DNA of 64,000 bases from Rhizobium leguminosarum (GTDB taxonomy: Bacteria; Pseudomonadota; Alphaproteobacteria; Rhizobiales; Rhizobiaceae), in the NCBI RefSeq assembly GCF_004123835.1, contig NZ_MZMU01000019.1, forward strand, positions 1 through 64,000, read 5' to 3'. This document shows positions 46,760 to 59,567 of the stretch, piece after piece. Under the pieces are notes generated by a model. It was not told the origin of the DNA. It was given only the letters and a program-made list of their open reading frames with translations, and did no database searches. Each line of letters starts with the position of its first letter. Within the stretch, counting starts at the first letter, position 1. Position numbers and translations under genes: made by a program.

Positions 46760-47416
46760 TTAGGAATCGACTTTGGGCAGCAACGCGTGCCGGGAAAGCA
46801 GCGCCGACAGCGTTTTTGCCATGATCACGAAATCCAGCCTGAGCGTCCATTTGGACAAATATTCGACGTCGAGGGAAATTCCATTCCGATAGCTGACGTC
46901 GTTGTGCCCGCTGGTTTGCCAATGGCCAGTCAGGCCGGGACGGAAGGCCATGTAGGCATAGGCATGTTCACCGTAACGCGGCAGCTCTTCTTTGGTAATG
47001 GCGCGAGGCCCGACGAGGCTCATTTGACCCAGCAACACGTTAATCAATTGCGGAAGCTTGTCGAGGCTCGATCGCCTCAAAATATCGCCGACGACCGTGA
47101 CGTGCGCGTCGGTCGTTGCGTCGGATCCTGTCGTCCGAAACTTGAGGCAACCAAACTCTTTTCCCTTATAACCGATCCTGCGATGAGAATTGAAAACAGG
47201 GCCCCAATCACTTAGCGTGACGATGACTGCCGCCGACAGAAGGAGCGGCGACAGAAAGAATAAGAAACTTGCCGCAATGATGATGTCCAATGCGCGCTTC
47301 AGAATTCTGCTGATCAGACGGGGTTGTGACGAATTGAATGGACGCCTTTCCTGTCGAGCCGTCGCGAAATCCCGCCAAGGTCCGGTTGGGTTGATGCCCT
47401 GATTTTTTCCCGCCAC
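46760..47416 (-). CDS. Priming sugar-phosphate transferase with internal deletion
   Basis: 218 residues from GTG 47416 (GGAG upstream); a TTG at 47455 is the alternative. Bacterial sugar transferase (PF02397 type): N-terminal basic part, membrane helix KRALDIIIAASFLFFLSPLL, then GPVFNSHRRIGYKGKEFGC, LKFRTT, VVGDILRRSSLDKLPQLIN, MSLVGPRAITKEELPRYGEH and RPGLTGHWQTSGHNDVSY. It transfers a sugar-1-phosphate to undecaprenyl phosphate. Compared with the paralogue at 57660 it lacks ~28 residues after KFRT, including the DDPRIT motif, so activity is doubtful. It is divergent from a Crp-type gene. Confidence 0.85.
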   Translation of the reverse strand: MAGKNQGINPTGPWRDFATARQERRPFNSSQPRLISRILKRALDIIIAASFLFFLSPLLLSAAVIVTLSDWGPVFNSHRRIGYKGKEFGCLKFRTTGSDATTDAHVTVVGDILRRSSLDKLPQLINVLLGQMSLVGPRAITKEELPRYGEHAYAYMAFRPGLTGHWQTSGHNDVSYRNGISLDVEYLSKWTLRLDFVIMAKTLSALLSRHALLPKVDS

Positions 47417-47869
47417 CTGCGTCTCCGTTAGACGAATTCCAGAAATCACAGCCAAAGCTTTGTTTTAATGCAAGTTTGATGTCTGTGACCGAGGTCATAA
47501 TCATGAATAAATTCCGTATTCTCTAAAGAAATTCTTGCGCATATTAAAAATATTACCTTTGATTTTGACTATATATCGGAAATGTTATTTAGTTTTATTT
47601 TAAAATTCGGTGTTGTTGTTATACTTGTTAGATGTATTCTTCAGGTAGGCAATTGTCATAAATTGTATAAAAATCGTCACGCAGCCCCAAAGACTTGTCT
47701 GCGATAGAATTCAATATGAATTTTATGATATATAAACATGAGGATTATTCATAATAATGTATAGTTTGAAAACGTAGTTTTTATTATATTATTGTTTGAC
47801 TTTCTAATTTAACCTATTACGAATGTCGCTCCAGATAATAAGTTATTTAGTCTGTGTGGAGTTGTGCGT
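47417..47869. other. AT-rich divergent intergenic, unit 1
   Basis: 453 bp, very AT-rich compared with its surroundings, between the sugar-phosphate transferase (left) and the Crp-type regulator (right). It has long A/T runs suggesting curved DNA and a region where silencing proteins could act. It carries the conserved 43-bp block at 47480-47522. No gene is seen. Confidence 0.6.
47480..47522. promoter_or_regulatory. Conserved 43-bp block, copy 1
   Basis: The block begins TGTCTGTGACC and contains the perfect palindrome TGACCGAGGTCA (47486-47497), then TAATC and AAATTC. About 35 of 43 positions match 58423-58465. In both units it lies 62-64 bp before the start codon of the leftward sugar-phosphate transferase. 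It is probably the operator/promoter of that gene, perhaps bound by the adjacent Crp-type regulator. Confidence 0.7.
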
Positions 47870-48619
47870 ATGGACGGGGCGATCAGCACCAGAGACAACA
47901 GAGCTAGAGGAAACGCAGCGCGAACAAGCGAAGCGGTTACTTGCGGGTCTGCAGGTATTGTTTACGACGGCCGGGCGAATTTGGATCACGAGTTCCCGTT
48001 TTGCCGCTCGAGTGTTCGAAAGTTTCGCCGCGGTGAGATTATTGCCGGCGCCGGCGTCGTCCTTGACATGTTCGCCCGCGTACAGCGCGGAATGGTGAGC
48101 GCAAGCACCCCGCTTGCCGATGGACGAGAGTTCATCGTGGAAATCGTTCCGAAAGGCGGCTTGATCGGCGAATTGGAGGTGCTGCGCAAGCAGTCTCTCA
48201 GCCTGGAATATCGGGCCTCGTCGGACTGCGAACTGCATTACTTCGACGGTCGGTTGCTGCGGGACTTATGTGCGAACGATCCGCAGTTTCAGGTGAAGAT
48301 CCTGTCGAAGGCGCTGGCTCGTGTTTCCGAACTCGAACTGCGGATCATTTCCAATGCCGGATCGAGTCTAAGGCAGAGACTGGCCCGGACGCTGCTGCGT
48401 CTTTCTGCCCTGTATAGAATGGATGCGCAGAATAGCGGCGACGAGCTGATCATCTCCCAGCATGAGCTGGCCGCGACACTTCCGGCGTCGCGTGAAAAGG
48501 TCAACCAATGCCTGCGGCGTTTGCGCGAGAGCAAAGTGGTCGACGGGACACAGGGCAAAATCCGCATTCTCAATCGGAAGGCGCTGGAGGCTTATGCCGA
48601 GGGTGCGTCTCTCGCCTGA
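47870..48619 (+). CDS. Crp/Fnr-family regulator, paralogue 1
   Basis: 249 residues from ATG 47870 (GGAG, 8 nt). N-terminal cyclic-nucleotide-fold domain at about 45-155 (FRRGEIIAGAGVVLDMFA...GREFIVEIVPKGGLIGELEVL). C-terminal winged helix with ISQHELAATLPASREKVNQCL, the Crp recognition helix region. It lacks the N-terminal Cys set of FNR, so it is not an oxygen sensor of that type; the ligand is unknown. It is highly similar to the regulator at 58830. It stands divergent from the sugar-phosphate transferase and probably controls polysaccharide synthesis. Confidence 0.9.
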   Translation: MDGAISTRDNRARGNAARTSEAVTCGSAGIVYDGRANLDHEFPFCRSSVRKFRRGEIIAGAGVVLDMFARVQRGMVSASTPLADGREFIVEIVPKGGLIGELEVLRKQSLSLEYRASSDCELHYFDGRLLRDLCANDPQFQVKILSKALARVSELELRIISNAGSSLRQRLARTLLRLSALYRMDAQNSGDELIISQHELAATLPASREKVNQCLRRLRESKVVDGTQGKIRILNRKALEAYAEGASLA

Positions 48620-48667
48620 GGCGTTGCCGCGATAAACAAAAAAACGGAACGGCAGAAAGCCTCAACA

Positions 48668-48692
48668 GAATCCGCCGCCGGCGGGTTTTGTG
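48668..48692 (+). terminator. Stem-loop after Crp-type gene 1
   Basis: CCGCC (48672-48676) and GGCGG (48680-48684) form a short GC stem with a 3-nt loop, followed by gttttgtgttt. It lies about 50 nt after the stop codon, consistent with an intrinsic terminator. Confidence 0.55.
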
Positions 48693-48812
48693 TTTGATGA
48701 CAGTGCGAGTGATAGTCAGAGAAAGCAGGCTGAAAGATCAGGTTGGCGTATTAGCACACTTGTCTTCATGCGCGTCGTCCCAAAATCGCTGTGCATTTTG
48801 GCGTGGCATACT

Positions 48813-48916
48813 TAGAGCGGTTCAGCTCTTCATGGAAACGCAGAACCGCTCTAACTTTTTGTTTTTACGCAATTCCGGACGGAAAACCGCTTCGCACTTT
48901 TCCTGGAATTGCTCTA
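48813..48916. repeat. RIME-like double palindrome
   Basis: Two consecutive palindromes: TAGAGCGGTTC (48813-48823) with GAACCGCTCTA (48843-48853), then GCAATTCC (48869-48876) with GGAATTGC (48905-48912), bounded again by a TAGAGC-type end at 48911-48916. It is the mosaic repeat type common in Rhizobium intergenic DNA. Its right edge supplies the TAG stop codon of the leftward glycosyltransferase gene ending at 48914. Confidence 0.75.
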
Positions 48917-49936
48917 GACTTCGCTCTCGGAAGCATTCCTCCAGTATTTCCAGCCTTCACCCTGTATGAGCCCGTGATCGGACAGGTCCTTCCAGCTTCT
49001 GTAGGTGCCCGTATCGTCGTAGACGAAGTCATCCATGTCCTTGCCTGAGGAGTATACGGTATATTCTTCCGTATGTTGGGACCGGTGTGCCGCATCGGCG
49101 ACCTTGTGCACGAAGGTCGACAGGAACTTGAAATGCAGAAGGGCGCCGGATACGCCGAGCGCTCCGCGCATGTCGCCCAAATTCAGGGAGAGCGGCCAGA
49201 CCTGGTGCGATGATTTAAGAAACAGACGTTCACCCGCCACATAGACGAGGGGTATCTTGTTGAGCGCGGGGCCGTCCCAGAGCCGGTCGTGGAAATAGAC
49301 GCGCCCGCGAACACCGCCCTTGATCCATATCGTCCAGTTGCGTTCGTCGAAATGCGCCACATAGCCGGAGCGGTCGAAGAGATTGCAGACCTCGAGCGGG
49401 TTGCGACCGGGTTCGCATATGTTTTCGAGAACGGGATGCGGGCTGTACATGTCGATCATGACCGAGCGGAGGGAATGGCCGCCCATGGAATCGATATAGG
49501 AAGTCAATTGATCGATCGGCCGTGTGTCGCAATGCGGATAGACCAGGAACTCGTCTGCATCGACATACAGGACCCACTTCTCCCGGCAGTGGCGGTTGAT
49601 GACTTCGTTGATCCAGTCGTTTCCGAACCTCGCCGCCTTGTAGGAACCATGAGCCGAAAGAAGGGAGACATCGTCGAAGCTGGACAGCAACTCGGCCGTG
49701 CCGTCGGTCGAGCCGTTGTCGATACAGATGAAGTGCTCGAAACCGAGATCGCGATAATACTGAAGGAAGAAGGCCAACCGGTGCCCCTCGTCACGGATGA
49801 CGCAGATGACGACGTGGCGCGCCTGCTTGAGCCCGTTGCGCAGCAGGTCATAGCGAACCTGCCGAGCCTTGAGCGACCGGCGCAGGCGGGCTTTCACGTA
49901 ATGCGAGATACTGGCGGCGGAAGCCCTATAACTCAT
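48914..49936 (-). CDS. Glycosyltransferase family 2-like protein
   Basis: 340 residues. The N-terminal part is basic. The GT-A-like core starts VVICVIRDEGHRLAFFLQYY, then FICIDNGSTDGTAEL and the metal site WVLYVDADEFLVYP. It resembles the Glyco_tranf_2_4 group (long, no membrane segment, DADEF motif). Start ATG 49936 has AGGA upstream. The stop codon lies inside the edge of a RIME-like repeat, so the C-terminus may have been trimmed when that repeat inserted. It probably adds a sugar to the exopolysaccharide repeat unit. Confidence 0.85.
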   Translation of the reverse strand: MSYRASAASISHYVKARLRRSLKARQVRYDLLRNGLKQARHVVICVIRDEGHRLAFFLQYYRDLGFEHFICIDNGSTDGTAELLSSFDDVSLLSAHGSYKAARFGNDWINEVINRHCREKWVLYVDADEFLVYPHCDTRPIDQLTSYIDSMGGHSLRSVMIDMYSPHPVLENICEPGRNPLEVCNLFDRSGYVAHFDERNWTIWIKGGVRGRVYFHDRLWDGPALNKIPLVYVAGERLFLKSSHQVWPLSLNLGDMRGALGVSGALLHFKFLSTFVHKVADAAHRSQHTEEYTVYSSGKDMDDFVYDDTGTYRSWKDLSDHGLIQGEGWKYWRNASESEV

Positions 49937-50069
49937 AATCTGTCCTGAAGATTATCCATTCCTGGAATGAATGGATGAATACTTTGCGCTTCCGTCTGCA
50001 AATCCACGGCTCGACCGGCGACGCTGAGTTCAGTCACGCGGACATTCAAGTCGGACCAACAATACATCA

Positions 50070-50981
50070 TCATACGGCGTAGTCGCCAACCAGCAGGCTC
50101 TGGACCCTAGGATTGGGTCCTTCTTTCTCAATTGCGTGCTCGATGCGCGCCCGTATCGACCGGTATTTATACAGCATCTTCCGATCGAAGCTTATTCCGC
50201 GATACAGCGAGTTGTAAATCGGATGTGCCTTGCGCAGATCGACGTATACTTGGCTTTCCTTATCGGTCCACGGAAAGAAAGTTCCATGCCATGGCTTCGG
50301 ATGCGCCATATAATGGACGATCGACAAGGAAGACATGTTCACCAGATGAAGGAATTGTTTGGGAAAGTTCCAGCGGTTCGATACCAGGATAAGCGATGAA
50401 CCGCAGACATAATTCAATGCACCCTGATCGTGTTTGCCCTCGCAGGCCTCGGGATTTCTAGCAAAAAGCTCGAGCGCCTCCTGCCCGATCCAGCCGTTTC
50501 GATGGAATTTCAGGACGCCTGCGTTGAAGTAGTGGCTGTCCTTTCCGGTGTCGAGGAAGTCATGGATCGCCGTGTAATCGCGCGCCGCGAAAAACCTGCC
50601 CTCGGGCACAGTGGCACTTTCGAACGCACCGAGATCGCTGACGATCTGGGTATCCCCATCGAGGTAGATGATCTGGGTATAGTTGGAAGGCAGGATCTCG
50701 CAAAGGACCAGCTTGGCCATCGTGCTGACGCTGATGCGTCCCTGGAAATGCGAACTGTCGAGCTTGCCGAGCGAGTCCTGCAGCGCTTCGGTCGCATCGG
50801 TCAATATGACCCCACTCCTTGCGAGCAGGGCTTTCAGCTCTTCGAAATTGTCGAGATGTTCCGACATCAGAACGCAGACGTCGGTCGCAGGGCTTGCGAA
50901 TTTGCGAGCCTGAAGCGCCGAGAGAATGGTCGGAAATGAATATTCGACATCCGTGACGTAGACGACGCACTGGTTGTTCAT
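50070..50981 (-). CDS. Glycosyltransferase family 8 protein
   Basis: 303 residues from ATG 50981 (SD AAAGGTG). The longer frame to 51110 has no ribosome site. GT8 features: N-terminal VVYVTDVEYSFPTILSALQA, metal site IIYLDGDTQI (DxD), HYFNAGVLKF and the C-terminal HYMAHPKPWHG, a version of the HxxGxxKPW motif. Retaining hexosyltransferases of this family use UDP-glucose or UDP-galactose. It belongs to the exopolysaccharide locus and is followed by the family 2 glycosyltransferase 133 bp downstream. Confidence 0.88.
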   Translation of the reverse strand: MNNQCVVYVTDVEYSFPTILSALQARKFASPATDVCVLMSEHLDNFEELKALLARSGVILTDATEALQDSLGKLDSSHFQGRISVSTMAKLVLCEILPSNYTQIIYLDGDTQIVSDLGAFESATVPEGRFFAARDYTAIHDFLDTGKDSHYFNAGVLKFHRNGWIGQEALELFARNPEACEGKHDQGALNYVCGSSLILVSNRWNFPKQFLHLVNMSSLSIVHYMAHPKPWHGTFFPWTDKESQVYVDLRKAHPIYNSLYRGISFDRKMLYKYRSIRARIEHAIEKEGPNPRVQSLLVGDYAV

Positions 50982-51289
50982 GTGATCACCTTTCCGATTG
51001 TGCGCAATACAAGTGAATCGGTATTGTCTTTGCGAGGCGAGGGACCAGTTGTGAATTGAGCCGACGGGTCTGTCATATGAAGGCCCTGTTCGGTATATAT
51101 AGGCCAGCATCCGGTGCGCTGGTGCTGAAGCGGGGTCTGGCTGTCGGCGGCTTTTGTATGTTTCATTGTTGAGATATTCGCCATGAAGAGTGCCTTGCCT
51201 GTCAAAAGGCTATGTTTCGACATGTTGTTTCGCGGTACGGCGATTGGTGCCGGGACCCTTGTCGGAATGTGGAGGGAAGGGGGATTGTC
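50982..51289. other. Divergent intergenic, GT8 / small protein
   Basis: 308 bp between two divergent genes. A TATA-rich segment (cggtatatatagg near 51093) could be a -10 region. No gene, repeat or clear operator was found. Confidence 0.4.
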
Positions 51290-51589
51290 ATGTTGATCAC
51301 CACACTCGGGGCAGCCGTGATTTCGATCGCTGCCGGGGCTTCCATCCGCGCCTGGGCTTTCGCAATTTTTGCAATCCTGGTGGCAATCGGCTTCGGCGGC
51401 GTGGCTTTCGCCGACGGGTCTTCCGTGATCGCGGCCATGCTCTCCGGCATCGCCATCCTCGTGCTCATGGAAATCGGCTATCTGGCAGGCGTGTTCCTGT
51501 CGGGGCTTTTGCGGCGCAGTGCCAGGCTGCGCGAAAACAATTCCGTTGCAGATAGCGTCGCGACCACCAGCGAGCGCCCGCAAGGCTGA
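51290..51589 (+). CDS. Small membrane protein, paralogue 2
   Basis: 99 residues from ATG 51290 (ggaaggggga upstream); the frame extending to 51212 is unsupported. Three hydrophobic helices and a polar C-terminal tail (RRSARLRENNSVADSVATT). It shares ISIAAGA-S-IRA-W-AFAIFA and a SERPQG-type end with paralogue 1 at 46314. No recognised family. It sits inside the exopolysaccharide locus, convergent with the Wzy-like gene. Confidence 0.78.
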   Translation: MLITTLGAAVISIAAGASIRAWAFAIFAILVAIGFGGVAFADGSSVIAAMLSGIAILVLMEIGYLAGVFLSGLLRRSARLRENNSVADSVATTSERPQG

Positions 51590-51777
51590 TGTCGACATAA
51601 AACCTACAGCATAGCCTTCCGCGACTGCCCTCGCAGGACGGCGTTTGTCCGATGGACTGCTTTGATAGGCGATCCTTGAAAGATGCGGTGCGGCCGGCCG
51701 GCTTCGGCCCAATGCGGGCACGCCGATGGCTCGACGAGATTGCCATCCCGCGCCGTGGCGGAGTTCCAAAGCGGGCG

Positions 51778-53244
51778 TCATCGTGTTGAAAACATCGGCG
51801 CTCTCATCAGAGATGTCGATGTCTCCAGCGGGGTTCGATTAGCGAGCGATCGGGTCGCGCGCCGGGGAGAGGTATTGGTTGCCAGGCAGCCGGCCGCCAG
51901 ACCTGCCGTGGTGCTGAACAGCAAGCCGAGATCCGTGCCGCTCCCCGATATCGCCGCCGAGGCGACCTGCGCGATGGATGCCATGACCGCAGCGTTTCCG
52001 ATCGCGTGCGTCTCCCGATCGCCTGACATGTGCCGGCCGGAGGCCCGCGCAAGGCTGTACAGGAAGGCGGCGAAGAGAAGAGTGCCGGTCAATCCGACAT
52101 TGGAGAGCAACGCAGCGATAAAACTCGAGGCCCGAACCGTACCGAGCCCGGCGCCGAAGGTGGCGGTATCGACGAATGCGATCAATGCCAGTGTATTCCA
52201 GGCGGTGCGCTCTTCACCGGATTGCGATTGGAGCTTGTCCGACAAGGTGGTGCTCATCAGGCCGGCGATGGAATTCCACGCATCGGGGACAAGGCTGAGT
52301 GCGACGATGACGCAGGGAATCAAAAACAGCGTGATCACCAGGAAAGTCACATGCGGGGTCTTGGCGGGGCCGCTGATCAGTCGTTTCAGGCAAAACAGAA
52401 CGAACATGCAGACAACGAAAATGCCGGCAATATAGGCGGTTGTCGATGTGCAGAGGACGATCGTCGGGCCGATGAAAAGCGTTGCAAGTCCTGCCATACG
52501 GCTTTGGACGCGCTCCAGCCAGAGCAGAAGCGTGAAGGAAAAATAGGCTAATGCGACTGCGCCATAAGTGCTTGCTTCGGGGAACGGGCCGACGATGCGT
52601 TTGAAGCCGCTGATCGTCTCGGCCGTATGCATCGTATAGTTCGCGTTTCTGATGACATCGAGCAGGTAGGACTGGTCGGTCAGGAATGTTCCGATATCAA
52701 TCAATGCCAGGGTAAAACATGCGATCGAGGCGACGATTAACTGCAGTGCGATGAAACGGGCATAGCCGAGCCTGGCAAGCCCCGAGACGACGGCAAAGCA
52801 GGCGAGGTCGCCGAGCAGATAGACAGACTGGCTGAGATTGGACGAACCCGGCGACAGGGGAGCGGCCACTGTCGACATCATGCCCGTGGTGTCTCGTGCA
52901 GAGGAGTAGACGAGGGTCGCACCTGCAAAGATGCGCGGCAAAAAGAAAGACGATGCCACCGAAAACAGGATGTAGGCGGCAAACCAGAAACCGGGACCCG
53001 GATAGGCCATGCTGGCGAGCGTCGCCTGTGTTTGAGCCGGGCGCAACAGGGCGGCCACCACGAGAAAAAGTACGAGAAGATGGCTTGGCTGGATGCTGCT
53101 GCCGCCGAGCGCGGGCAATTGCAGAGCCGCTGCCGCTCCGAGCAGCGTCGACAGGCAAAGGGTCGTGATCGCAAAACGCGCCCCGTTGACCATGCTGAGC
53201 AGGCCAAGTAGCAGAACGATGAAGCCGATCGGTTCTATCGACAT
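51778..53244 (-). CDS. Wzy-like O-antigen/exopolysaccharide polymerase
   Basis: 488 residues with about ten to twelve membrane helices and a larger periplasmic loop in the middle (about 110-140: RIFAGATLVYSS...TTGMMSTVAAPLSP). A second part, GPFPEASTYGAVALAYFSF and GAGLGTVRASSFIAALLSNVG, matches the Wzy_C-like region of polymerases. The C-terminal ~40 residues are polar and unconserved. Together with the Wzx, ExoF-like and Wzc-like genes it completes a Wzx/Wzy-dependent pathway. Family resemblance in Wzy proteins is always weak, so the call rests partly on context. Confidence 0.75.
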   Translation of the reverse strand: MSIEPIGFIVLLLGLLSMVNGARFAITTLCLSTLLGAAAALQLPALGGSSIQPSHLLVLFLVVAALLRPAQTQATLASMAYPGPGFWFAAYILFSVASSFFLPRIFAGATLVYSSARDTTGMMSTVAAPLSPGSSNLSQSVYLLGDLACFAVVSGLARLGYARFIALQLIVASIACFTLALIDIGTFLTDQSYLLDVIRNANYTMHTAETISGFKRIVGPFPEASTYGAVALAYFSFTLLLWLERVQSRMAGLATLFIGPTIVLCTSTTAYIAGIFVVCMFVLFCLKRLISGPAKTPHVTFLVITLFLIPCVIVALSLVPDAWNSIAGLMSTTLSDKLQSQSGEERTAWNTLALIAFVDTATFGAGLGTVRASSFIAALLSNVGLTGTLLFAAFLYSLARASGRHMSGDRETHAIGNAAVMASIAQVASAAISGSGTDLGLLFSTTAGLAAGCLATNTSPRRATRSLANRTPLETSTSLMRAPMFSTR

Positions 53245-53366
53245 GCTTCAGATCCCGATCCGGACGGAGCAGCGGAGGCATCGGGTTTGCCGAAAAGCGG
53301 CATCCACCTTCCGACGCAATGCCGAGGCGAAAGCCGCCAGCTGTCGTTAATGGTCACGACCGCCCC

Positions 53367-54752
53367 CTAATTCGATCCCGTCTGGGATATCCAGCCGGGA
53401 GCCGTCTGATTGTCGCCTGCTACATCAGATAGCGGGACTGCCGAGCTTTGCTGCTGTGGCGCGGACTGCAGCTGCAGCGTAGGCGACGGCGTCTGGAGAT
53501 CCGTGTCGATGCCGATTTCGACGACATCATGCGGCCGCAAGCTGGTCGTCTCGTCCGCCTCGATGTTGCGATAAGTGCCATCGTCGTTGCGGCGCACGAT
53601 CCTGTAGTTCTTCTGCGCTCTACCAAGACCCGGCATGTCCGTATTCATCTGGGCGAGTTGAGCGCTGTAGCCAGCCTGTTCGCCCAGGAGCTGGGCCACC
53701 TGAATGTCGATTGCCGCCCTGCCGATCGCGAGATTGACCTGGTTGAGCAGCTCCTGGTTTTCGCTGTTCTGCCGGTTGACGATATTGATCTTCGAGCGAT
53801 CGGCTTCGCTGAGCCCCTGGCGAGCCGTGGTCAGGGCGACCTCGAGATCGATCAGAGTGCCTTGTGCATCCGCGACGCCGCGGTCGACCGTGACCTGCCG
53901 GGAATTGCTGACCAGGCCCTTGCTCACCAGGCTGTTGACATTATCCAGTTCCTTTTGCGCAAGGTCGATCTGCCGCTTTTGCGAATTGATCTTGGCCTCG
54001 AGTGATTGGACCTGCTGGCCGTAGAGACGGGCGAGGTCGCTCGCCGCTTCGATCTGGCTTTCGATATCGACGCGTCGCAGCCGCATCAGGTTCAATTCCT
54101 GCGCCTTCAGCTTGTCCACATCGGGTGTTCCGGCGAGTTCGGCAGGGATCTCGAAACTCTGTTCGCCGGCGATCTCGGCGCGCAACCGCGCCTGGCGCAT
54201 CAGAAGATCGCGCCGGTTGAGAATGGCCGTTCGGTAGGCGCCGGCAGCCTGAATCCGGTCGCGCTCGAAGACGGTATTTTCCTCGCGCTCCCGAAGGAAG
54301 CCGCCGGCGATGCTGACGGCCTTCATGACCGTCATATCGGCCTCAAAAGCATAGCGCCCGGGGGTCTGCACGGTCCCGGTTACGAAGATCGGCGCATGCT
54401 GGGCAATTTCCACGGCGATGAACGGCTTTCCCGGCAGTTCGGCCTTTTCGGAGAGCGCAGTGGCGATCGCATCGGAAACCTGCTCCGTCGTCTTGCCGAT
54501 CGCCTGCACTTGGCCGGCGATCGGAATCGCCAGATTACCGGCATCGTCGACTGTATATGTTCCGCCGAGGGCTTCCCAGCTGGCATACCGGGAATCTGAC
54601 GATCGCCATTCGACGACACGCAGTCTCACCTGATCTTCCGGCACGAGGGTGTAGTTTTCCGCATGGGCGACGCTCCAGCCGGTCACGCCGGAAAATACCA
54701 GCAAGGCAAGGGCGATGGAGATGAGGCGACCGGACAAGGATGTGCGCTGCAT
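53367..54752 (-). CDS. ExoF/Wza-like polysaccharide export protein
   Basis: 461 residues. Signal peptide about 1-31 (ending AHAEN). Poly_export domain YTLVPEDQVRLRVVEWRSSD...YTVDDAGNLAIPIAGQVQAIG, then an SLBB-like part (APIFVTGTVQTPGRYAFEADMT). A long coiled-coil region (about 200-345) follows, rich in Gln, Ala and Leu, and then a second beta-type segment (IEADETTSLRPHDVVEIGI). The coiled-coil insertion is the ExoF feature rather than Wza's. It probably forms the periplasmic/outer-membrane conduit. GGAG lies 9 nt before ATG 54752. It is the last gene of the operon with the GT2 and Wzc-like genes. Confidence 0.85.
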   Translation of the reverse strand: MQRTSLSGRLISIALALLVFSGVTGWSVAHAENYTLVPEDQVRLRVVEWRSSDSRYASWEALGGTYTVDDAGNLAIPIAGQVQAIGKTTEQVSDAIATALSEKAELPGKPFIAVEIAQHAPIFVTGTVQTPGRYAFEADMTVMKAVSIAGGFLREREENTVFERDRIQAAGAYRTAILNRRDLLMRQARLRAEIAGEQSFEIPAELAGTPDVDKLKAQELNLMRLRRVDIESQIEAASDLARLYGQQVQSLEAKINSQKRQIDLAQKELDNVNSLVSKGLVSNSRQVTVDRGVADAQGTLIDLEVALTTARQGLSEADRSKINIVNRQNSENQELLNQVNLAIGRAAIDIQVAQLLGEQAGYSAQLAQMNTDMPGLGRAQKNYRIVRRNDDGTYRNIEADETTSLRPHDVVEIGIDTDLQTPSPTLQLQSAPQQQSSAVPLSDVAGDNQTAPGWISQTGSN

Positions 54753-54758
54753 TGTCTG

Positions 54759-55781
54759 CTATCTCCGTTTCGTTGCGATCGACGGCGAAGGCATCTCGCG
54801 CGGCGCGGGATTGCCGAATTCCAGGATGCGGGACGGAGAGGCGCGGCCGACAAGAAGATCGGATAGCGCCAGCAAATTGCCGTTCAAGCGTCCCCATCGG
54901 TCGATCAAGCGGTCATTGAATAATAGGCCCCGCGTATTCGCCAGGATGTTGCGGCCGATCTGTGCGACAGCACGGCCCTTCGACATCGTGCCCTTCCGGA
55001 TCAGGTAGACAGGATTGGCAACTTGCGAATAGCCGAGTCTTCGGCCGGGCTGGCGCCCGGATCGGACGCCGAGATGCACGCCGCGAGCGCCTTCGACACG
55101 CACGGACCTGCCGTAGCGGGCGATGGACCGGCTGAAATCGACATCTTCGAGCCAGCCGTAGAGCGGCAGCTGTTCATCGAAGGCCAGCGCGTGCTGGACA
55201 ACGGGTGAAAGGCGAACCGCCATGTTGCATCCGTAGGCGTTATAAACGTCCGCCACATGCCCAGCCCTTTCGCCCGCAGTTTCAAGAACCTGCAGGGCCT
55301 TTGACATGCTGAGGCCGCCATCGAGGATGCCGTCGGCGAGGACTTCGCCGGTGGCGATCGCCACGTCGGGGTTTGCCGCAAAGACAGCCGCCATCCGCGA
55401 CAGGAAGGTCGCGGCTGGAATGAAGTCGTCATCCAGGAAGATCAGAATATCCGTATCGGCGGCGGCGGCCTGGATGATCCTGTTGCGCTGGGAGGTCAGG
55501 CCACGGCTGCCGACGATGACTTCCACATCGAGGCGGTCGGCGAGGCCGGCGGCATCGTCGATCACGGGCACGCAGACGATCAGCCGCTCGGCCTGGTCCG
55601 GCAGGGCGGTGAGATAATCGACGGTCTCCTTGAGTATCGAGGGGCGGCCCGCCGAAGCAATCCCGACAGCCATTCGCAATGGGCGGCGCGCGCGGCCCGC
55701 CATGGCTTCAGCGCCGCAAGGAACAGGCGCCGGTCCGATCGGGCTGTCCTGCCTGGTTGCTTCTGCCGAAGGTGAAGTCAT
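54759..55781 (-). CDS. Glycosyltransferase family 2 protein
   Basis: 340 residues. The core starts RMAVGIASAGRPSILKETVD at about residue 36, with the metal site ILIFLDDDFIPAA near 125 and the acceptor-side ED in LYGWLEDVDFSRSI. There is no membrane helix, so it is a peripheral inner-membrane or cytosolic enzyme building the repeat unit. Its ATG overlaps the Wzc-like stop (ATGA), and the export gene follows 6 nt downstream, making a tight co-polymerase / transferase / exporter operon. Confidence 0.88.
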   Translation of the reverse strand: MTSPSAEATRQDSPIGPAPVPCGAEAMAGRARRPLRMAVGIASAGRPSILKETVDYLTALPDQAERLIVCVPVIDDAAGLADRLDVEVIVGSRGLTSQRNRIIQAAAADTDILIFLDDDFIPAATFLSRMAAVFAANPDVAIATGEVLADGILDGGLSMSKALQVLETAGERAGHVADVYNAYGCNMAVRLSPVVQHALAFDEQLPLYGWLEDVDFSRSIARYGRSVRVEGARGVHLGVRSGRQPGRRLGYSQVANPVYLIRKGTMSKGRAVAQIGRNILANTRGLLFNDRLIDRWGRLNGNLLALSDLLVGRASPSRILEFGNPAPREMPSPSIATKRR

Positions 55782-57541
55782 GACTGTATTCTCTTCGGTG
55801 CGTGGTTGATGATTGCGCCGAGGATCTCCGCGCCGACATTCCGCAGGGTCTCGATGACGTGCATGGTATCGTCGATCGAGGTGTGCCCGTGCGAGGTGAC
55901 CACGAGGACACCGTCCAGTTCCGGCGCGATCGCATTGGCATCCGGCGAAGCAGAGAATGCGGAAATGTCGACGAATATGGCGTCGAACTCCTTTTTCAGG
56001 TCGGCGAAGCTCAACTGCGTGCGGCGGGAACTGAGGCGAATGGCCGGCGTCACCGCTTCGACTTTGCCGAGGGGTAGGAATTTCAGCGTCGGGGTGATGG
56101 GCAATGCCGCCGTCTGGATCAGTTCGCCATTGTCGAGAACATCGACGAGGCCTTTGGAACTATGGGGCGCGATCGATTTGCTGAGCGACGATTTCTGCGC
56201 AGCCGCATCGATCAGCAGCGTCTGCGCTCCTGATATCGACGAGAGCACCGCAAGTTCGCATGCTATGGTCGATGCCCCGCTGCCGGGATTGACGGCGACG
56301 ATTCCAATGACGACCCGGCGTTTGCGCCGAAGACCAACAACCGTCGCGCTCAGCTCCGCCATGCCTGGAATAACAGGATAGGCGGCTGCGGTGCCGCTGC
56401 TGCCGGTACCGGCGGCGGGGAAACGCGCAGAGTGACCATTGCGGGTCCTCGATGTCGCCAGCAAAGTGACAAAGGGAAGCCCGCCGGCTTCCGCGATCTG
56501 ATGGGGCCGGACGATTCGGCGATCGCCGGCGTGCCTTATCATGGCGAGTGCGAAGCCGACCCCAAGACCAACCGCCGCCGCAAAGGCGATGATGAGCGTG
56601 CTGCGTGGTCTGGCTTTCGAAAGAGGCAGGGTGGCCCGAGAGACGATCGTGGCATCCGACACCGGGTAGGTGATGCGCTGCTTGGCTTCGGTCAGCTGAT
56701 TCAAGGTATTTTCATAAAGGGTGCGGCGGGCGTCAGTCGCGCTCTGCAGCTCCGCAAGCTTGAACTGATCGCGCGGATTGCTCGTGAAGCTGGCCAGGGC
56801 ACTGGCAGCTTCGGCCAGTCCGCGCTGCTGCTCGCTTACGAACCTGGTCAGCCATTCGCTGTATTGCCGGGACGCATTGGCCTTCATCGCGATATTCTTC
56901 TGGATATACTGCCTGGCCAGCGTGTCGGCGATGTCGACGGCCTGCTGCGGGGTCGACGCCGCAGCCGATATCTCGATGATCGTCGAACTCCCGATCCGGC
57001 GAACTCCCATCATATTCAGCAGCGTGGCGACCGCCCGATCATGGATCCGCCCGTCCTCGATCTGCTGTTGCGGCTGTGCGTCACGCGGTCCTGGGCCTGC
57101 CGCTTCCTGCGACGCCGTATCCGGTTCGGAAGAAACCCCCATCAACCAGTTCTTTGCCCTATCCTGCAGCGAAGGCGTCTGATCGACAAAGTTAGGATCG
57201 GTATCGAGACCAAGTGCCGTTACCGTTCCACCGACGACATCGCTGGATTTGGCGATCTCCAACTGTCCCTCGATGAACGCGTCTTCCGCGAAAGCCCTCT
57301 GTGCTTCGGAGCCGCTGACCTGGGGGACGATCACAAGTTGCGTGTTGGCAACGAATGTCGGTTCGGCGGTCAGCACGTAGCTCCCTGCCATTACGAGGAA
57401 AGCGAAAGTCGTCGCCGCAATCCACAGCCAGCGCATTCTGAGAAAGAAGAGCATATCCCGCAAGGTGAGCGGCGAATTCCCGCCGGTGGCTGCGGCAGGC
57501 AGAATCGGAGAAACACCGCTGAAGATCGTGCTTGAGGTCAT
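55778..57541 (-). CDS. Wzc/ExoP-like chain-length protein, degenerate kinase
   Basis: 587 residues. Layout: first membrane helix ~37-57, periplasmic Wzz domain with coiled coil (about 60-300), second helix ~320-342 (STLIIAFAAAVGLGVGFALAMI), then a cytoplasmic BY-kinase-like domain. That domain keeps the fold but not the active site: Walker A reads NPGSGAST at 418-425, with Ala where the catalytic Lys belongs. Walker A' is LLIDAAAQ instead of the usual LLIDADLR form. D525 of Walker B remains (AIFVDIS). The C-terminus ends HAPKRIQS with no Tyr cluster. Chain-length control without tyrosine kinase activity is inferred. Confidence 0.88.
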   Translation of the reverse strand: MTSSTIFSGVSPILPAAATGGNSPLTLRDMLFFLRMRWLWIAATTFAFLVMAGSYVLTAEPTFVANTQLVIVPQVSGSEAQRAFAEDAFIEGQLEIAKSSDVVGGTVTALGLDTDPNFVDQTPSLQDRAKNWLMGVSSEPDTASQEAAGPGPRDAQPQQQIEDGRIHDRAVATLLNMMGVRRIGSSTIIEISAAASTPQQAVDIADTLARQYIQKNIAMKANASRQYSEWLTRFVSEQQRGLAEAASALASFTSNPRDQFKLAELQSATDARRTLYENTLNQLTEAKQRITYPVSDATIVSRATLPLSKARPRSTLIIAFAAAVGLGVGFALAMIRHAGDRRIVRPHQIAEAGGLPFVTLLATSRTRNGHSARFPAAGTGSSGTAAAYPVIPGMAELSATVVGLRRKRRVVIGIVAVNPGSGASTIACELAVLSSISGAQTLLIDAAAQKSSLSKSIAPHSSKGLVDVLDNGELIQTAALPITPTLKFLPLGKVEAVTPAIRLSSRRTQLSFADLKKEFDAIFVDISAFSASPDANAIAPELDGVLVVTSHGHTSIDDTMHVIETLRNVGAEILGAIINHAPKRIQS

Positions 57542-57659
57542 GTCGTCCTAATCCAAAATGGCGAGATCACGGAGTAACCAAGTAGTGGTAGCTTGGAGGG
57601 ACGGGGGAGTAGCGTGTCTTCCGATTCCAGGCATGATCGGCGGCTCTCCCCATGAATGC

Positions 57660-58361
57660 TCAATACGAGCCGCGCTGCGAAAACAGAGCGGGAATGGTCT
57701 TGGCAATGATGATGAAGTCCCGGCCGAGCGACCAGTTGTTGAGATAGTGAACGTCGAGGGAAACCCGGTACTCGTAGCTGACATCATTGCGCCCGCTGGT
57801 CTGCCAGTGACCGGTCAGGCCCGGGCGGACGGCCATGTAGGCCCATATATGCTCGCCGTAGCGCGGCAATTCCTCGGCCGTGATCGGTCGGGGGCCGACG
57901 AGGCTCATGTCGCCACGCACGATATTGATCAGTTGAGGAAGCTCGTCGATACTCGACCGCCTGAGGATATCACCGACGGCCGTGATCCTCGGATCGTCCT
58001 TCAGCTTGCGTGTCTCTTCCCATTCGCTTCGCGCAGCCGGGTTGTTTTGCAGCAATTCGGCAAGCTGAGCACTGGCATCGGTCTTCATCGTGCGAAACTT
58101 GAGGCATCCGAACGGTGCTCCGCCGACGCCGATGCGCGTATGGGAATAGAAGACCGGGCCGCGGTCGCTCATCTTCACGATCATTGCGACGATCAACAGA
58201 AGCGGGGAAAGCAGGATCAGTGCCGTGACTGCGATGACAAGGTCTAGCGCGCGCTTCGACGATCTGCCTGCCGCGCGAGGCCGGGACGAATGGAGATCGC
58301 CGCCTTTCGCGGACCGTCCGACACGCGACCAAGCCTCGAAACTATGTGCTTCCCATGTCAT
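57660..58361 (-). CDS. Priming sugar-phosphate transferase (full length)
   Basis: 233 residues from ATG 58361 (GGAG, 8 nt); a second ATG at 58379 is less well placed. PF02397-type bacterial sugar transferase: helix SKRALDLVIAVTALILLSPL, GPVFYSHTRIGVGG, FGCLKFRTMKTDA, LKDDPRITAVGDILRRSS, IDELPQLINI, MSLVGPRPITAEELPRYGEH and RPGLTGHWQTSGRNDVSY. All expected motifs are present. It starts repeat-unit assembly by loading hexose-1-phosphate on undecaprenyl phosphate. It is divergent from a Crp-type regulator and is the intact paralogue of 46760. Confidence 0.92.
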   Translation of the reverse strand: MTWEAHSFEAWSRVGRSAKGGDLHSSRPRAAGRSSKRALDLVIAVTALILLSPLLLIVAMIVKMSDRGPVFYSHTRIGVGGAPFGCLKFRTMKTDASAQLAELLQNNPAARSEWEETRKLKDDPRITAVGDILRRSSIDELPQLINIVRGDMSLVGPRPITAEELPRYGEHIWAYMAVRPGLTGHWQTSGRNDVSYEYRVSLDVHYLNNWSLGRDFIIIAKTIPALFSQRGSY

Positions 58362-58829
58362 CGGTGGTCTCCAAAACATTCCGATTAAGAACCGTTCAAA
58401 GTTTGCTGCGCCGCACTCTGGTTGTCTGTTACCAAGGTCATAATCCTTAACAAATTCTTTATGCTACTAACGGGCAATCGAGAATTCGGAGTACACCTTG
58501 ATGGCCTTATATTCATTTAAAACGACAATCTAATCTAGTTCGTGGTGATTATCCGCTGATGCTTGTCTATCAGTTTTGATATCATCATTTCGATTATTGC
58601 CGCTTTTTATTCAGTAAGCCATTTTAATAGGCATTCATTTTCGATCGCGTGGCGGGTTTTTTGGCTTCCTTGAGATTTTGAGTCCTTTTACGGTGTATAT
58701 TTTGTTTTAAAGTTAAATATATACTTTATCTTTGCGTCATATCTCCGTGATGTTATTTGACTCTCATATTAAGACAATATAAATGATGCAGTGCAGCATT
58801 GCCTATGGTTATCGAGTGGAGTTATGCGC
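58362..58829. other. AT-rich divergent intergenic, unit 2
   Basis: 468 bp, AT-rich, between the sugar-phosphate transferase and the second Crp-type regulator. It carries the 43-bp conserved block at its left side and long A/T stretches (58680-58760) before the regulator. No gene is seen. Confidence 0.6.
58423..58465. promoter_or_regulatory. Conserved 43-bp block, copy 2
   Basis: The block begins TGTCTGTTACC and contains ACCAAGGT (58431-58438), then TCATAATC and AAATTC. It matches 47480-47522 at about 35 of 43 positions, at the same distance from the leftward sugar-phosphate transferase start (62 bp). The flanking sequences are not alike, which points to selection on this block. Confidence 0.7.
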
Positions 58830-59567
58830 ATGGATGGGGCGACACACGCATCAGATCGCAGGGCCGGCATCGGCAAGGCGGCGGTATCGGCTAACGGCGG
58901 CATTCATCTGAACAGCCGCATCGTCATCGACGACGAATTCCTTTCCTGCCGGTCGAGCGTCCGGCGTTTCCGGCGCGGCGAGATCATCGCCGGGGCCGGC
59001 GTCCTCGTCGATACGTTCGCGCGCGTTCATTCGGGGGTGGTCAGCGCAAGCACGATGCTGCCCGACGGCAGGGAATTCATCGTCGAGATCATTCCGAAAT
59101 CCGGCCTCATCGGCGAGCTCGAAGTTCTGCGCAGGCAGACATTGAGCCTCGAATACCGCGCCGGTTCCGCCTGCGAACTGCATTTCTTCGAAGGCCGGCT
59201 GCTGCGCGACATGTACGCCAGCGATCCCTGCTTTCGCGAAAAGGTCTTCTCCAGGGCGCTGGCGCGTATTTCAGAGCTTGAACTTCGGATCATTGCGAAT
59301 GCGGCATCGAGCCTGCAATCGAGGCTGGCCAGCACGCTGCTGCGGCTCTCCACTGTTTATGGAAAAGATGCGGCAAACAGCGGCGACGAACTGATCATCT
59401 CGCAAAATGATCTGGCCGCGACGCTGCCGGCGTCCCGCGAGAAGGTCAATCAATGCCTGCGGCGCCTGCGGGAAGGCAAGATCATCGACGGGGGCCAGGG
59501 CAAGATCCGCATCCTCAACCGCAAGGCGTTGGAGGCCTGTGCCAACGGCGCGGTTTCGGTGAAGTGA
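58830..59567 (+). CDS. Crp/Fnr-family regulator, paralogue 2
   Basis: 245 residues from ATG 58830, chosen because GGAG lies 8 nt upstream exactly as in paralogue 1. cNMP-fold domain FRRGEIIAGAGVLVDTFA...GREFIVEIIPKSGLIGELEVL and winged helix ISQNDLAATLPASREKVNQCL. The two regulators are similar over their whole length, with divergent N-terminal ~40 residues. No FNR-type N-terminal Cys cluster. Its stop overlaps the next start by one base (TGATG), so the regulator and two glycosyltransferases are co-translated, an unusual coupling. Confidence 0.9.
   Translation: MDGATHASDRRAGIGKAAVSANGGIHLNSRIVIDDEFLSCRSSVRRFRRGEIIAGAGVLVDTFARVHSGVVSASTMLPDGREFIVEIIPKSGLIGELEVLRRQTLSLEYRAGSACELHFFEGRLLRDMYASDPCFREKVFSRALARISELELRIIANAASSLQSRLASTLLRLSTVYGKDAANSGDELIISQNDLAATLPASREKVNQCLRRLREGKIIDGGQGKIRILNRKALEACANGAVSVK

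What the first reader, a model, noticed from the sequence alone, without database searches (positions are those of the whole stretch)
47480..58465. 43-bp block shared by two divergent EPS promoters
The AT-rich intergenics of both sugar-transferase/Crp units share ~35/43 positions in one block while the rest has diverged. It holds an ACC-NN-GGT palindrome and sits at 62-64 bp from the sugar-transferase start in both. This looks like a selected operator-promoter module and a candidate site for the two Crp-type paralogues.
Basis: seen in the sequence. Interest (0 to 1): 0.68.

Follow-up and report, generated by a model that had tools for sequence, protein, structure and literature searches.

The report
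Twin Crp switch for polysaccharide genes
Two neighbouring polysaccharide gene units in a Rhizobium of the R. leguminosarum group carry the same short DNA switch, which comparison with many relatives marks as the probable landing site of the Crp-type regulator encoded next door; it is a convincing new example of a well-known kind of promoter rather than a new kind of system.

Summary
The 43-bp block is real (35/43 identical; 0 of 300 shuffles reach 35); its core fits only two places in the 6.95-Mb genome closely. The core, TGTKACCnnGGTCATA plus GACA on the sugar-transferase side, is almost unchanged beside every related sugar-transferase/crp pair examined, down to Crp proteins 35-41% identical. 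All 62 of 148 genus genomes with this Crp gene have the motif; 5 of the other 86 have it, each with one mismatch and not by a listed sugar transferase. It lies 64-94 bp from the sugar-transferase start but 128-444 bp from crp, and two stand-alone crp copies lack it. With the palindrome at -41.5, CAGACA falls at -35 and a weak CAAnnT at -12 to -7: a class II Crp-activated promoter aimed at the sugar transferase. The recognition helix (LPASREKVN) is the same in both paralogues, so both probably read both sites; in three genomes the unit-A crp has decayed but its site remains. Binding and activation are inferred. The unit-B promoter (pssY, Pss-II) is published as active and RosR-repressed; the passages I read name no Crp site. 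Unexpected: unit A's sugar transferase lost its Asp-Glu pair in 37 of 37 rows, yet stays under purifying selection.

The parts
47480..47522 (.). 43-bp block, unit A
   Evidence: 35/43 identical to 58423-58465
58423..58465 (.). 43-bp block, unit B (Pss-II, pssY)
   Evidence: the composite pattern finds only these two sites in the own genome
47484..47499 (.). Crp-type palindrome TGTGACCGAGGTCATA, predicted operator A
   Evidence: footprinting
58427..58442 (.). Crp-type palindrome TGTTACCAAGGTCATA, predicted operator B
   Evidence: footprinting
47480..47485 (-). CAGACA, predicted -35 element of sugar-transferase promoter A
   Evidence: positions 7-12 after palindrome centre = -35..-30
58423..58428 (-). 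CAGACA, predicted -35 element of sugar-transferase promoter B
47457..47462 (-). CAAAGC, weak predicted -10 element A (CAAnnT in 26 of 33 related unit-A loci, CAAAGC in the other 7)
58400..58405 (-). CAAACT, weak predicted -10 element B (CAAnnT in 44 of 45 related unit-B loci)
47450..47450 (-). predicted transcription start A (inferred, about +/-2)
   Evidence: class II geometry, not measured
58393..58393 (-). predicted transcription start B (inferred, about +/-2)
   Evidence: class II geometry, not measured
47500..47522 (.). AT-rich conserved upstream flank A
   Evidence: not kept in the distant loci
58443..58465 (.). AT-rich conserved upstream flank B
   Evidence: not kept in the distant loci
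46760..47416 (-). sugar transferase A (start GTG 47416): PF02397, Asp-Glu dyad lost and about 24 aa deleted
57660..58361 (-). sugar transferase B = PssY (start ATG 58361)
47870..48619 (+). Crp-A, Crp/Fnr-family regulator (likely start ATG 47870, inferred from GGAG spacing)
   Evidence: PF00027 + PF13545; sequence
58830..59567 (+). Crp-B, Crp/Fnr-family regulator (crp1 of the Pss-II literature; likely start ATG 58830, inferred)
   Evidence: 70% identical to Crp-A
58756..58762 (+). conserved TTTGACT near crp start, candidate crp promoter element
47795..47801 (+). same element in unit A

Best explanation
The block is the activator part of the sugar-transferase promoter in both units. A dimer of the neighbouring Crp-type protein binds the 16-bp palindrome centred at -41.5, overlaps a poor -35 element (CAGACA) and recruits RNA polymerase to a weak -10 element (CAAnnT) 17 bp further on, starting transcription about 30 nt before the sugar-transferase start codon (class II activation). 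Because the reading helices are identical and the sites nearly so, Crp-A and Crp-B probably act on both sites, so that the two units form one small linked regulon. Shown by sequence: the site, its conservation, its place relative to the sugar transferase, its linkage to this Crp clade. Inferred: binding, activation, start site, cross-regulation, and that the protein does not depend on cAMP in the classical way.
For: Core kept in all groups incl. Crp homologues of 35-41% identity; 18 positions (-49 to -43 and -40 to -30) identical in 13-14 of 14 lineages. 62 of 62 crp+ genus genomes have the motif within one mismatch vs 5 of 86 crp-; 8 of 8 crp+ vs 8 of 386 crp- in the family sample. None of those 13 entries from crp- genomes had a sugar transferase or crp in the DNA examined around it. 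81 crp- genus genomes carry a sugar-transferase homologue with no such motif near a listed match (one search read). Distance centre to sugar-transferase start 64-76 in the three Rhizobium groups, 69-74 in five Phyllobacterium/plasmid loci, 68-94 in six distant ones; to crp 328-444 and, distant, 128-207 (L193 left out). CAGACA in 45 of 45 unit-B, 27 of 33 unit-A and 14 of 14 group-3 loci (the rest CAGACT/G); CAAnnT 17 bp on in 44 of 45, 26 of 33 and 13 of 14, while the spacer varies between groups; T at -7 in 12 of 14 lineages. Helix LPASREKVN in every row that covers it except one decayed fragment. In 3 genomes crp-A has decayed but site and transferase remain; in L179 the crp next to the transferase looks frame-broken, the site is kept, and a second crp copy, matched in one unbroken stretch, lies 6 kb off without a site. 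Published: the 424-bp fragment before pssY is an active promoter in two media (PMC4182512 section 19; primers map here); crp1 and pssY rise in a rosR mutant (PMC4696191 passages and section 14).
Against: No binding or start-site data. The -10 elements are poor; unit A here and 7 of 33 relatives have CAAAGC, and in the distant lineages little beyond T at -7 fits. The half-sites are not perfectly symmetric, and unit B has lost G at one conserved position. The rise of crp1 and pssY in the rosR mutant is equally explained by direct RosR repression of both. Co-occurrence of site and crp is partly expected from gene linkage, and the genomes are related, so the Fisher value overstates. Two stand-alone crp homologues (L178, L179) have no site within 3 mismatches nearby, so the site is not a general autoregulatory element of this clade. 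A looser search of the own genome leaves many weaker candidates unjudged.
Confidence: 0.7

Rival explanations
1. The site is bound by the linked Crp proteins, but as a repressor operator: a promoter lies in the AT-rich flank (TATAAAG or CATAAAG reading towards the transferase) and the palindrome sits just after it.
For: A TATAAA/CATAAA-like hexamer reading to the transferase stands about 15 bp upstream of the palindrome in most close loci.
Against: By eye no conserved -35 sequence upstream of that hexamer; not kept in the distant lineages that keep the palindrome; a -35/-10 register downstream instead.
Confidence: 0.15
2. The block is a site of the global cyclic-nucleotide regulator Clr rather than of the linked Crp proteins.
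For: Published Clr core GTNNCNNNNGNNAC (PMC10127613 passages) fits both window sites with one mismatch, and loci ending in GGTCACA (e.g. L087, L116, L118, L126) exactly.
Against: The Clr core does not require the nearly invariant inner CC..GG; the relaxed core has 77 matches in this window alone, 54 expected, against 2 composite sites in the genome; the site follows the linked Crp clade. Clr's helix reads ASRPKVNR where these read ASREKVNQ.
Confidence: 0.07
3. The conservation is of a translated leader peptide: reading towards the transferase the core is ATG ACC nnG GTC ACA GAC (Met-Thr-x-Val-Thr-Asp).
For: The six codons are open in the loci listed and most core changes outside codon 3 are synonymous or ATG to GTG (in unit B all 296 single-base codon differences in codons 1-6 are synonymous, but they come from one site). 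In group 3, 22 of 44 single-base codon differences in codons 7-14 are synonymous in this frame and none in the others (few sites).
Against: Beyond codon 6 there is no coding signal in the larger sets: extra states by codon position 4/7/3 (unit B), 10/10/11 (unit A), 19/16/16 (lineages); synonymous share 0.20, 0.20 and 0.17 in this frame against 0.16-0.44 in the other two. Codon 3 varies mainly at positions 1-2. Frame length 9-261 codons with free frame shifts. Asp codon changed in L177.
Confidence: 0.05
4. The block is the site of RosR, the known repressor of pssY and crp1.
For: RosR represses both genes; the paper names pssY among genes with a RosR-box, whose place is not in the text I read (PMC4696191 section 14).
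Against: The box it lists for crp lies 129 nt before crp and the RosR-box sequence does not resemble the block by eye. RosR/MucR proteins are said to act in several rhizobial species (same paper), while the motif follows this Crp clade.
Confidence: 0.03
5. The block is only the least diverged part of an old tandem duplication, or a dispersed repeat, without function.
For: The two units are paralogous.
Against: Same core in single-unit genomes and in distant lineages, while much of the rest has changed; two close matches only in the genome.
Confidence: 0.02

Closest known systems
E. coli CRP (CAP) class II promoters (recalled; e.g. galP1)
   Same: TGTGA-N6-TCACA-like palindrome at -41.5 overlapping -35; SRE in the recognition helix (recalled for E. 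coli); same family
   Different: a linked regulator with two close sites found in the genome instead of a global one; inner CC..GG nearly fixed; Arg of the cyclic-nucleotide pocket replaced; cAMP not shown
Sinorhizobium meliloti Clr, PDB 7pza/7pzb (PMC10127613, passages read)
   Same: best PDB match (5.2e-11), related palindrome GTNNCNNNNGNNAC
   Different: ASRPKVNR vs ASREKVNQ; Arg-Ser where these have Leu-Ser (that this is the ligand pocket is recalled); Clr has many genomic sites
Pss-II region of R. leguminosarum bv. trifolii TA1: pssY / crp1 promoter (PMC4182512, passages and sections 18-19; PMC4696191, passages and section 14)
   Same: same locus as unit B: primers of the pssY promoter fragment map to 58362-58381 and 58763-58776
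   Different: those texts report promoter activity and RosR repression; what I read of them describes no Crp site, no shared block and no second unit

Membership tests
Crp/Fnr-family regulators | N-terminal cNMP_binding domain plus Crp-type HTH | tested here: met
   PF00027 and PF13545 above cut-off in both proteins
cAMP-dependent CRP proper | Arg-Ser of the ligand pocket (R82, S83 in E. coli; recalled) | tested here: not met
   Leu-Ser in the window protein against Clr Arg-Ser; no Arg at that aligned place in the rows that cover it (L174/L196 and L175/L194 have one a place or two earlier); far below the CRP equivalog cut-off (48.1 and 39.5 against 266 bits)
Class II Crp-activated promoter | Crp-type palindrome centred at -41.5, overlapping -35 | tested here: inconclusive
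   a -35/-10 pair in that register in most close loci, but the hexamers are weak and no start site is mapped
Class II Crp-activated promoter | activation by the bound protein | not testable with these tools
   needs expression assay
Clr binding site | GTNNCNNNNGNNAC | tested here: inconclusive
   one mismatch in both window sites (found with the relaxed pattern ending in AY); exact in a few relatives
Monotopic phosphoglycosyl transferase, sugar transferase A | catalytic Asp-Glu dyad (recalled for PglC) | tested here: not met
   0 of 37 unit-A rows keep D-E; all 77 other rows do, some being two fetches of one locus
Protein-coding leader | excess of synonymous change in frame | tested here: not met
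   with a small exception in group 3

The most novel reading that the evidence does not exclude
Two Crp paralogues without a normal cAMP pocket share one operator and drive, from twin promoters, an active priming transferase (PssY) and a long-lived catalytically dead copy of it. The dead copy is kept as a dosage or assembly partner that competes with the active enzyme, so that the switch sets how much of a second surface polysaccharide is started.
Probability: 0.25. Interest if true: 0.65.

Novelty: new member of a known kind. Interest (0 to 1): 0.5.

Why it matters
It gives a testable 16-bp operator, -35/-10 register and start site for a published but unexplained promoter (pssY/crp1), whose crp gene is strongly repressed by RosR, and names the likely local activator. 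The near-invariance of site and helix over 35%-identical proteins makes it a clean case of regulator-operator co-conservation, and the linked dead transferase raises a question about pseudoenzymes in polysaccharide priming.

Tried and rejected
Rfam gave nothing, so a known RNA family is not indicated. A crp-directed class II promoter was considered: the TATGCT hexamer is 4 bp too close (read off), and the distance to crp is not kept. Leader peptide tested and mostly rejected. Dispersed repeat rejected (one search shows one further place with 3 mismatches in the 23-base core). A looser 16-bp palindrome search of the own genome (up to 3 mismatches) gives 290 hits against 155 for the reversed control; these were not judged one by one, so weaker extra targets remain possible. 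The order-wide protein scan (397 genomes) found the Crp clade only in the own and two same-genus genomes. Rows dropped: L099 (contig end, no upstream DNA; the same genome's motif lies on another contig, L192), one of 33 unit-A loci and L179, L180 gave no start by the rule, and for L193 the start given is an ORF, not crp. On checking, one search corrected an earlier wording of mine: the two stand-alone crp copies in L178 and L179 lack the motif. L180's transferase looks frame-broken.
Full report
What is there. The window lies in a 6.95-Mb genome of 28 contigs of the Rhizobium leguminosarum complex: the named species nearest by its Crp protein are R. johnstonii 3841, R. sophorae, R. laguerreae, R. 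ruizarguesonis and R. leguminosarum (96-99%). Two units 10.9 kb apart each hold a sugar transferase (PF02397) on the minus strand and a divergent Crp/Fnr-family gene (PF00027 + PF13545) on the plus strand. I call them unit A (47 kb) and unit B (58 kb). The Crp proteins are 70% identical, the transferases 57%. Unit B is the published Pss-II region: two primers of the pssY promoter fragment match at 58362-58381 (1 mismatch) and, for 14 bases, 58763-58776 (1 mismatch), and a pssY primer matches exactly at 58338-58363 (PMC4182512 passages and sections 18-19; PMC6628131 passages). Its transferase is therefore PssY and its regulator the crp1 of that literature.

The two 43-mers share 35 positions; 0 of 300 shuffle pairs reach 35, the maximum being 28. 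The spacing of 62-64 bp is correct from the ribosome-site-supported starts 58361 and 47416; the longest-ORF starts would give other numbers.

Footprinting. Loci were collected from 148 genus genomes (62 with the Crp gene at E 1e-30 or better, 97 places), 394 family genomes (8 at 1e-22), named species (20 loci) and plasmids (4 records, 6 places). Wherever the crp homologue stands with a sugar transferase, and the DNA between is held, the core TGTCTGTKACCnnGGTCATA or a one- to two-base variant is there. This includes Phyllobacterium, Sinorhizobium chiapasense and lineages whose Crp is 35-41% identical and transferase 56-61%. The exceptions are two stand-alone crp copies, in L178 and L179, which have no match within three mismatches nearby. 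Over 14 lineages (three group consensuses, one Phyllobacterium locus and ten other single loci) the positions -49 to -43 and -40 to -30 are the same in 13 or 14 of 14, while the two central bases vary. Within the groups, conservation is high from the transferase start through the block, is lower (about 0.6-0.85 of rows) in most of the stretch towards crp, and rises again near crp around a TTTGACT (in group 3 the drop is small).

It follows this regulator. In the genus, motif (one mismatch allowed) and Crp gene agree as 62 with both, 0 with crp only, 5 with motif only, 81 with neither (the Fisher value there ignores relatedness). The five have one mismatch each, and no transferase or crp was found in the DNA taken around them. 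In the family sample the 8 crp-carrying genomes all have the motif by a transferase; the other 8 of the 16 motif genomes have one mismatch and no transferase or crp in the DNA around. Linkage explains part of this. But of the 86 crp-negative genus genomes, 81 carry a transferase homologue, and none of their listed matches lies by a motif hit; the list is cut at the weak end, and motifs with two or more mismatches were not sought there. Counts of crp places and motif places per genome agree in 57 of 62. G035, G056 and G070 have one motif more (decayed crp), G010 one more elsewhere, and G112 one fewer because its unit-A motif has two mismatches (L116). In the own genome the composite of palindrome, CAGACA and CAAnnT, up to three mismatches, occurs only at the two places.

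Direction and geometry. The palindrome centre lies 72-75 bp (unit B, 45 of 45 loci), 64-76 (unit A, 32 of 33), 67-73 (group 3, 14 of 14), 69-74 (5 of 7 Phyllobacterium/plasmid loci) and 68-94 (6 distant loci) from the transferase start. To crp it is 348-404, 369-444, 347-395, 328-381 and, in the distant loci other than L193, 128-207. Towards the transferase, bases 7-12 after the centre are CAGACA in 45 of 45, 27 of 33 and 14 of 14 loci of the three groups, and bases 30-35 are CAAnnT in 44 of 45, 26 of 33 and 13 of 14, the 17 bases between differing from group to group. If the centre is -41.5, these are exactly -35..-30 and -12..-7. The variable nn are then -9 and -8, and T at -7 is kept in 12 of 14 lineages. 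That is the layout of a class II Crp promoter (recalled from E. coli). Weak points: the hexamers are poor, the distant lineages fit only in part, and unit A of this strain, like 7 of 33 relatives, has CAAAGC.

The protein side. Every Crp row that covers it, bar one decayed fragment, has LPASREKVN in the recognition helix, in both paralogues and the 35% relatives. E. coli CRP reads TGTGA with Arg-Glu of that helix (recalled), and the same residues are here. Clr, the best PDB match (7pza; PMC10127613 passages), has ASRPKVNR and a different published core site. The Arg of the cyclic-nucleotide pocket (recalled) is Leu in the window protein against Clr, so classical cAMP control is doubtful. In three genomes (L183-L185) unit A's crp has decayed to fragments of 39, 123 and 42 aligned residues, while the transferase and the palindrome remain. 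In L179 the crp beside the transferase looks frame-broken, the palindrome is kept, and a second crp copy, matched in one unbroken stretch, lies 6 kb away. Both are expected if the site can be served in trans by the other paralogue.

Alternatives. The core can be read as Met-Thr-x-Val-Thr-Asp towards the transferase. The changes inside the palindrome are mostly compatible with this, but beyond it there is no coding signal in the larger sets. A repressor role cannot be excluded. Clr is possible but does not explain the nearly fixed inner bases or the linkage. RosR has a listed box 129 nt before crp; its box for pssY is not located in the text I read.

What is known. The pssY promoter fragment is active in 79CA and M1 media (PMC4182512 section 19). 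In a rosR mutant the Crp gene rises by log2 7.05, and lacZ fusions of crp1 and pssY rise too (PMC4696191 passages and section 14). The searches gave no description of a Crp site here; only the passages and sections named were read, the rest seen as listings.

By-product. Unit A's transferase has lost the Asp-Glu dyad in 37 of 37 rows and 22-32 residues in the middle, yet in the 33 related loci compared no stop codon interrupts the match and the median dN/dS is about 0.27, against 0.13 for unit B: a maintained pseudoenzyme under the same switch.

Noticed in passing
46760-47416 (-) and L087-L120, L183-L185, L192: Sugar transferase A lacks the catalytic Asp-Glu dyad (mostly Asp-Lys) and 22-32 residues in 37 of 37 rows, but keeps an open frame with median dN/dS about 0.27: a conserved pseudo-phosphoglycosyl transferase.
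   Followed up: partly
58756-58762 and 47795-47801 (+): TTTGACT conserved about 60-75 bp before the crp start in both paralogue groups, candidate crp promoter or RosR-controlled element.
   Followed up: no
Crp-A and Crp-B, ligand pocket: The Arg of the cyclic-nucleotide phosphate pocket (recalled) is replaced, mostly by Leu; the ligand, if any, is unknown.
   Followed up: no
L183, L184, L185: Three species have a decayed unit-A crp but keep the operator and transferase.
   Followed up: partly
L178:19877-20602 (-) and L179:14001-14693 (+): Stand-alone second crp copies in two Phyllobacterium plasmids, without transferase or motif beside them; the one in L179 has a long inverted repeat (CTGCACCGTAATCAGAC...) a few hundred bases upstream.
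   Followed up: partly
58423-58442 and 47480-47499 (-): The operator read towards the transferase spells Met-Thr-x-Val-Thr-Asp in nearly all loci; no coding signal beyond it in the larger sets.
   Followed up: yes
L193 (G399): A perfect palindrome TGTGACCCCGGTCACA stands before a transferase, with the crp homologue about 1.2 kb away.
   Followed up: no
L191 (G010:C6:3352924): A third, one-mismatch copy GCCTGTGACCAGGGTCATA in one crp-carrying genome, outside the transferase units.
   Followed up: no
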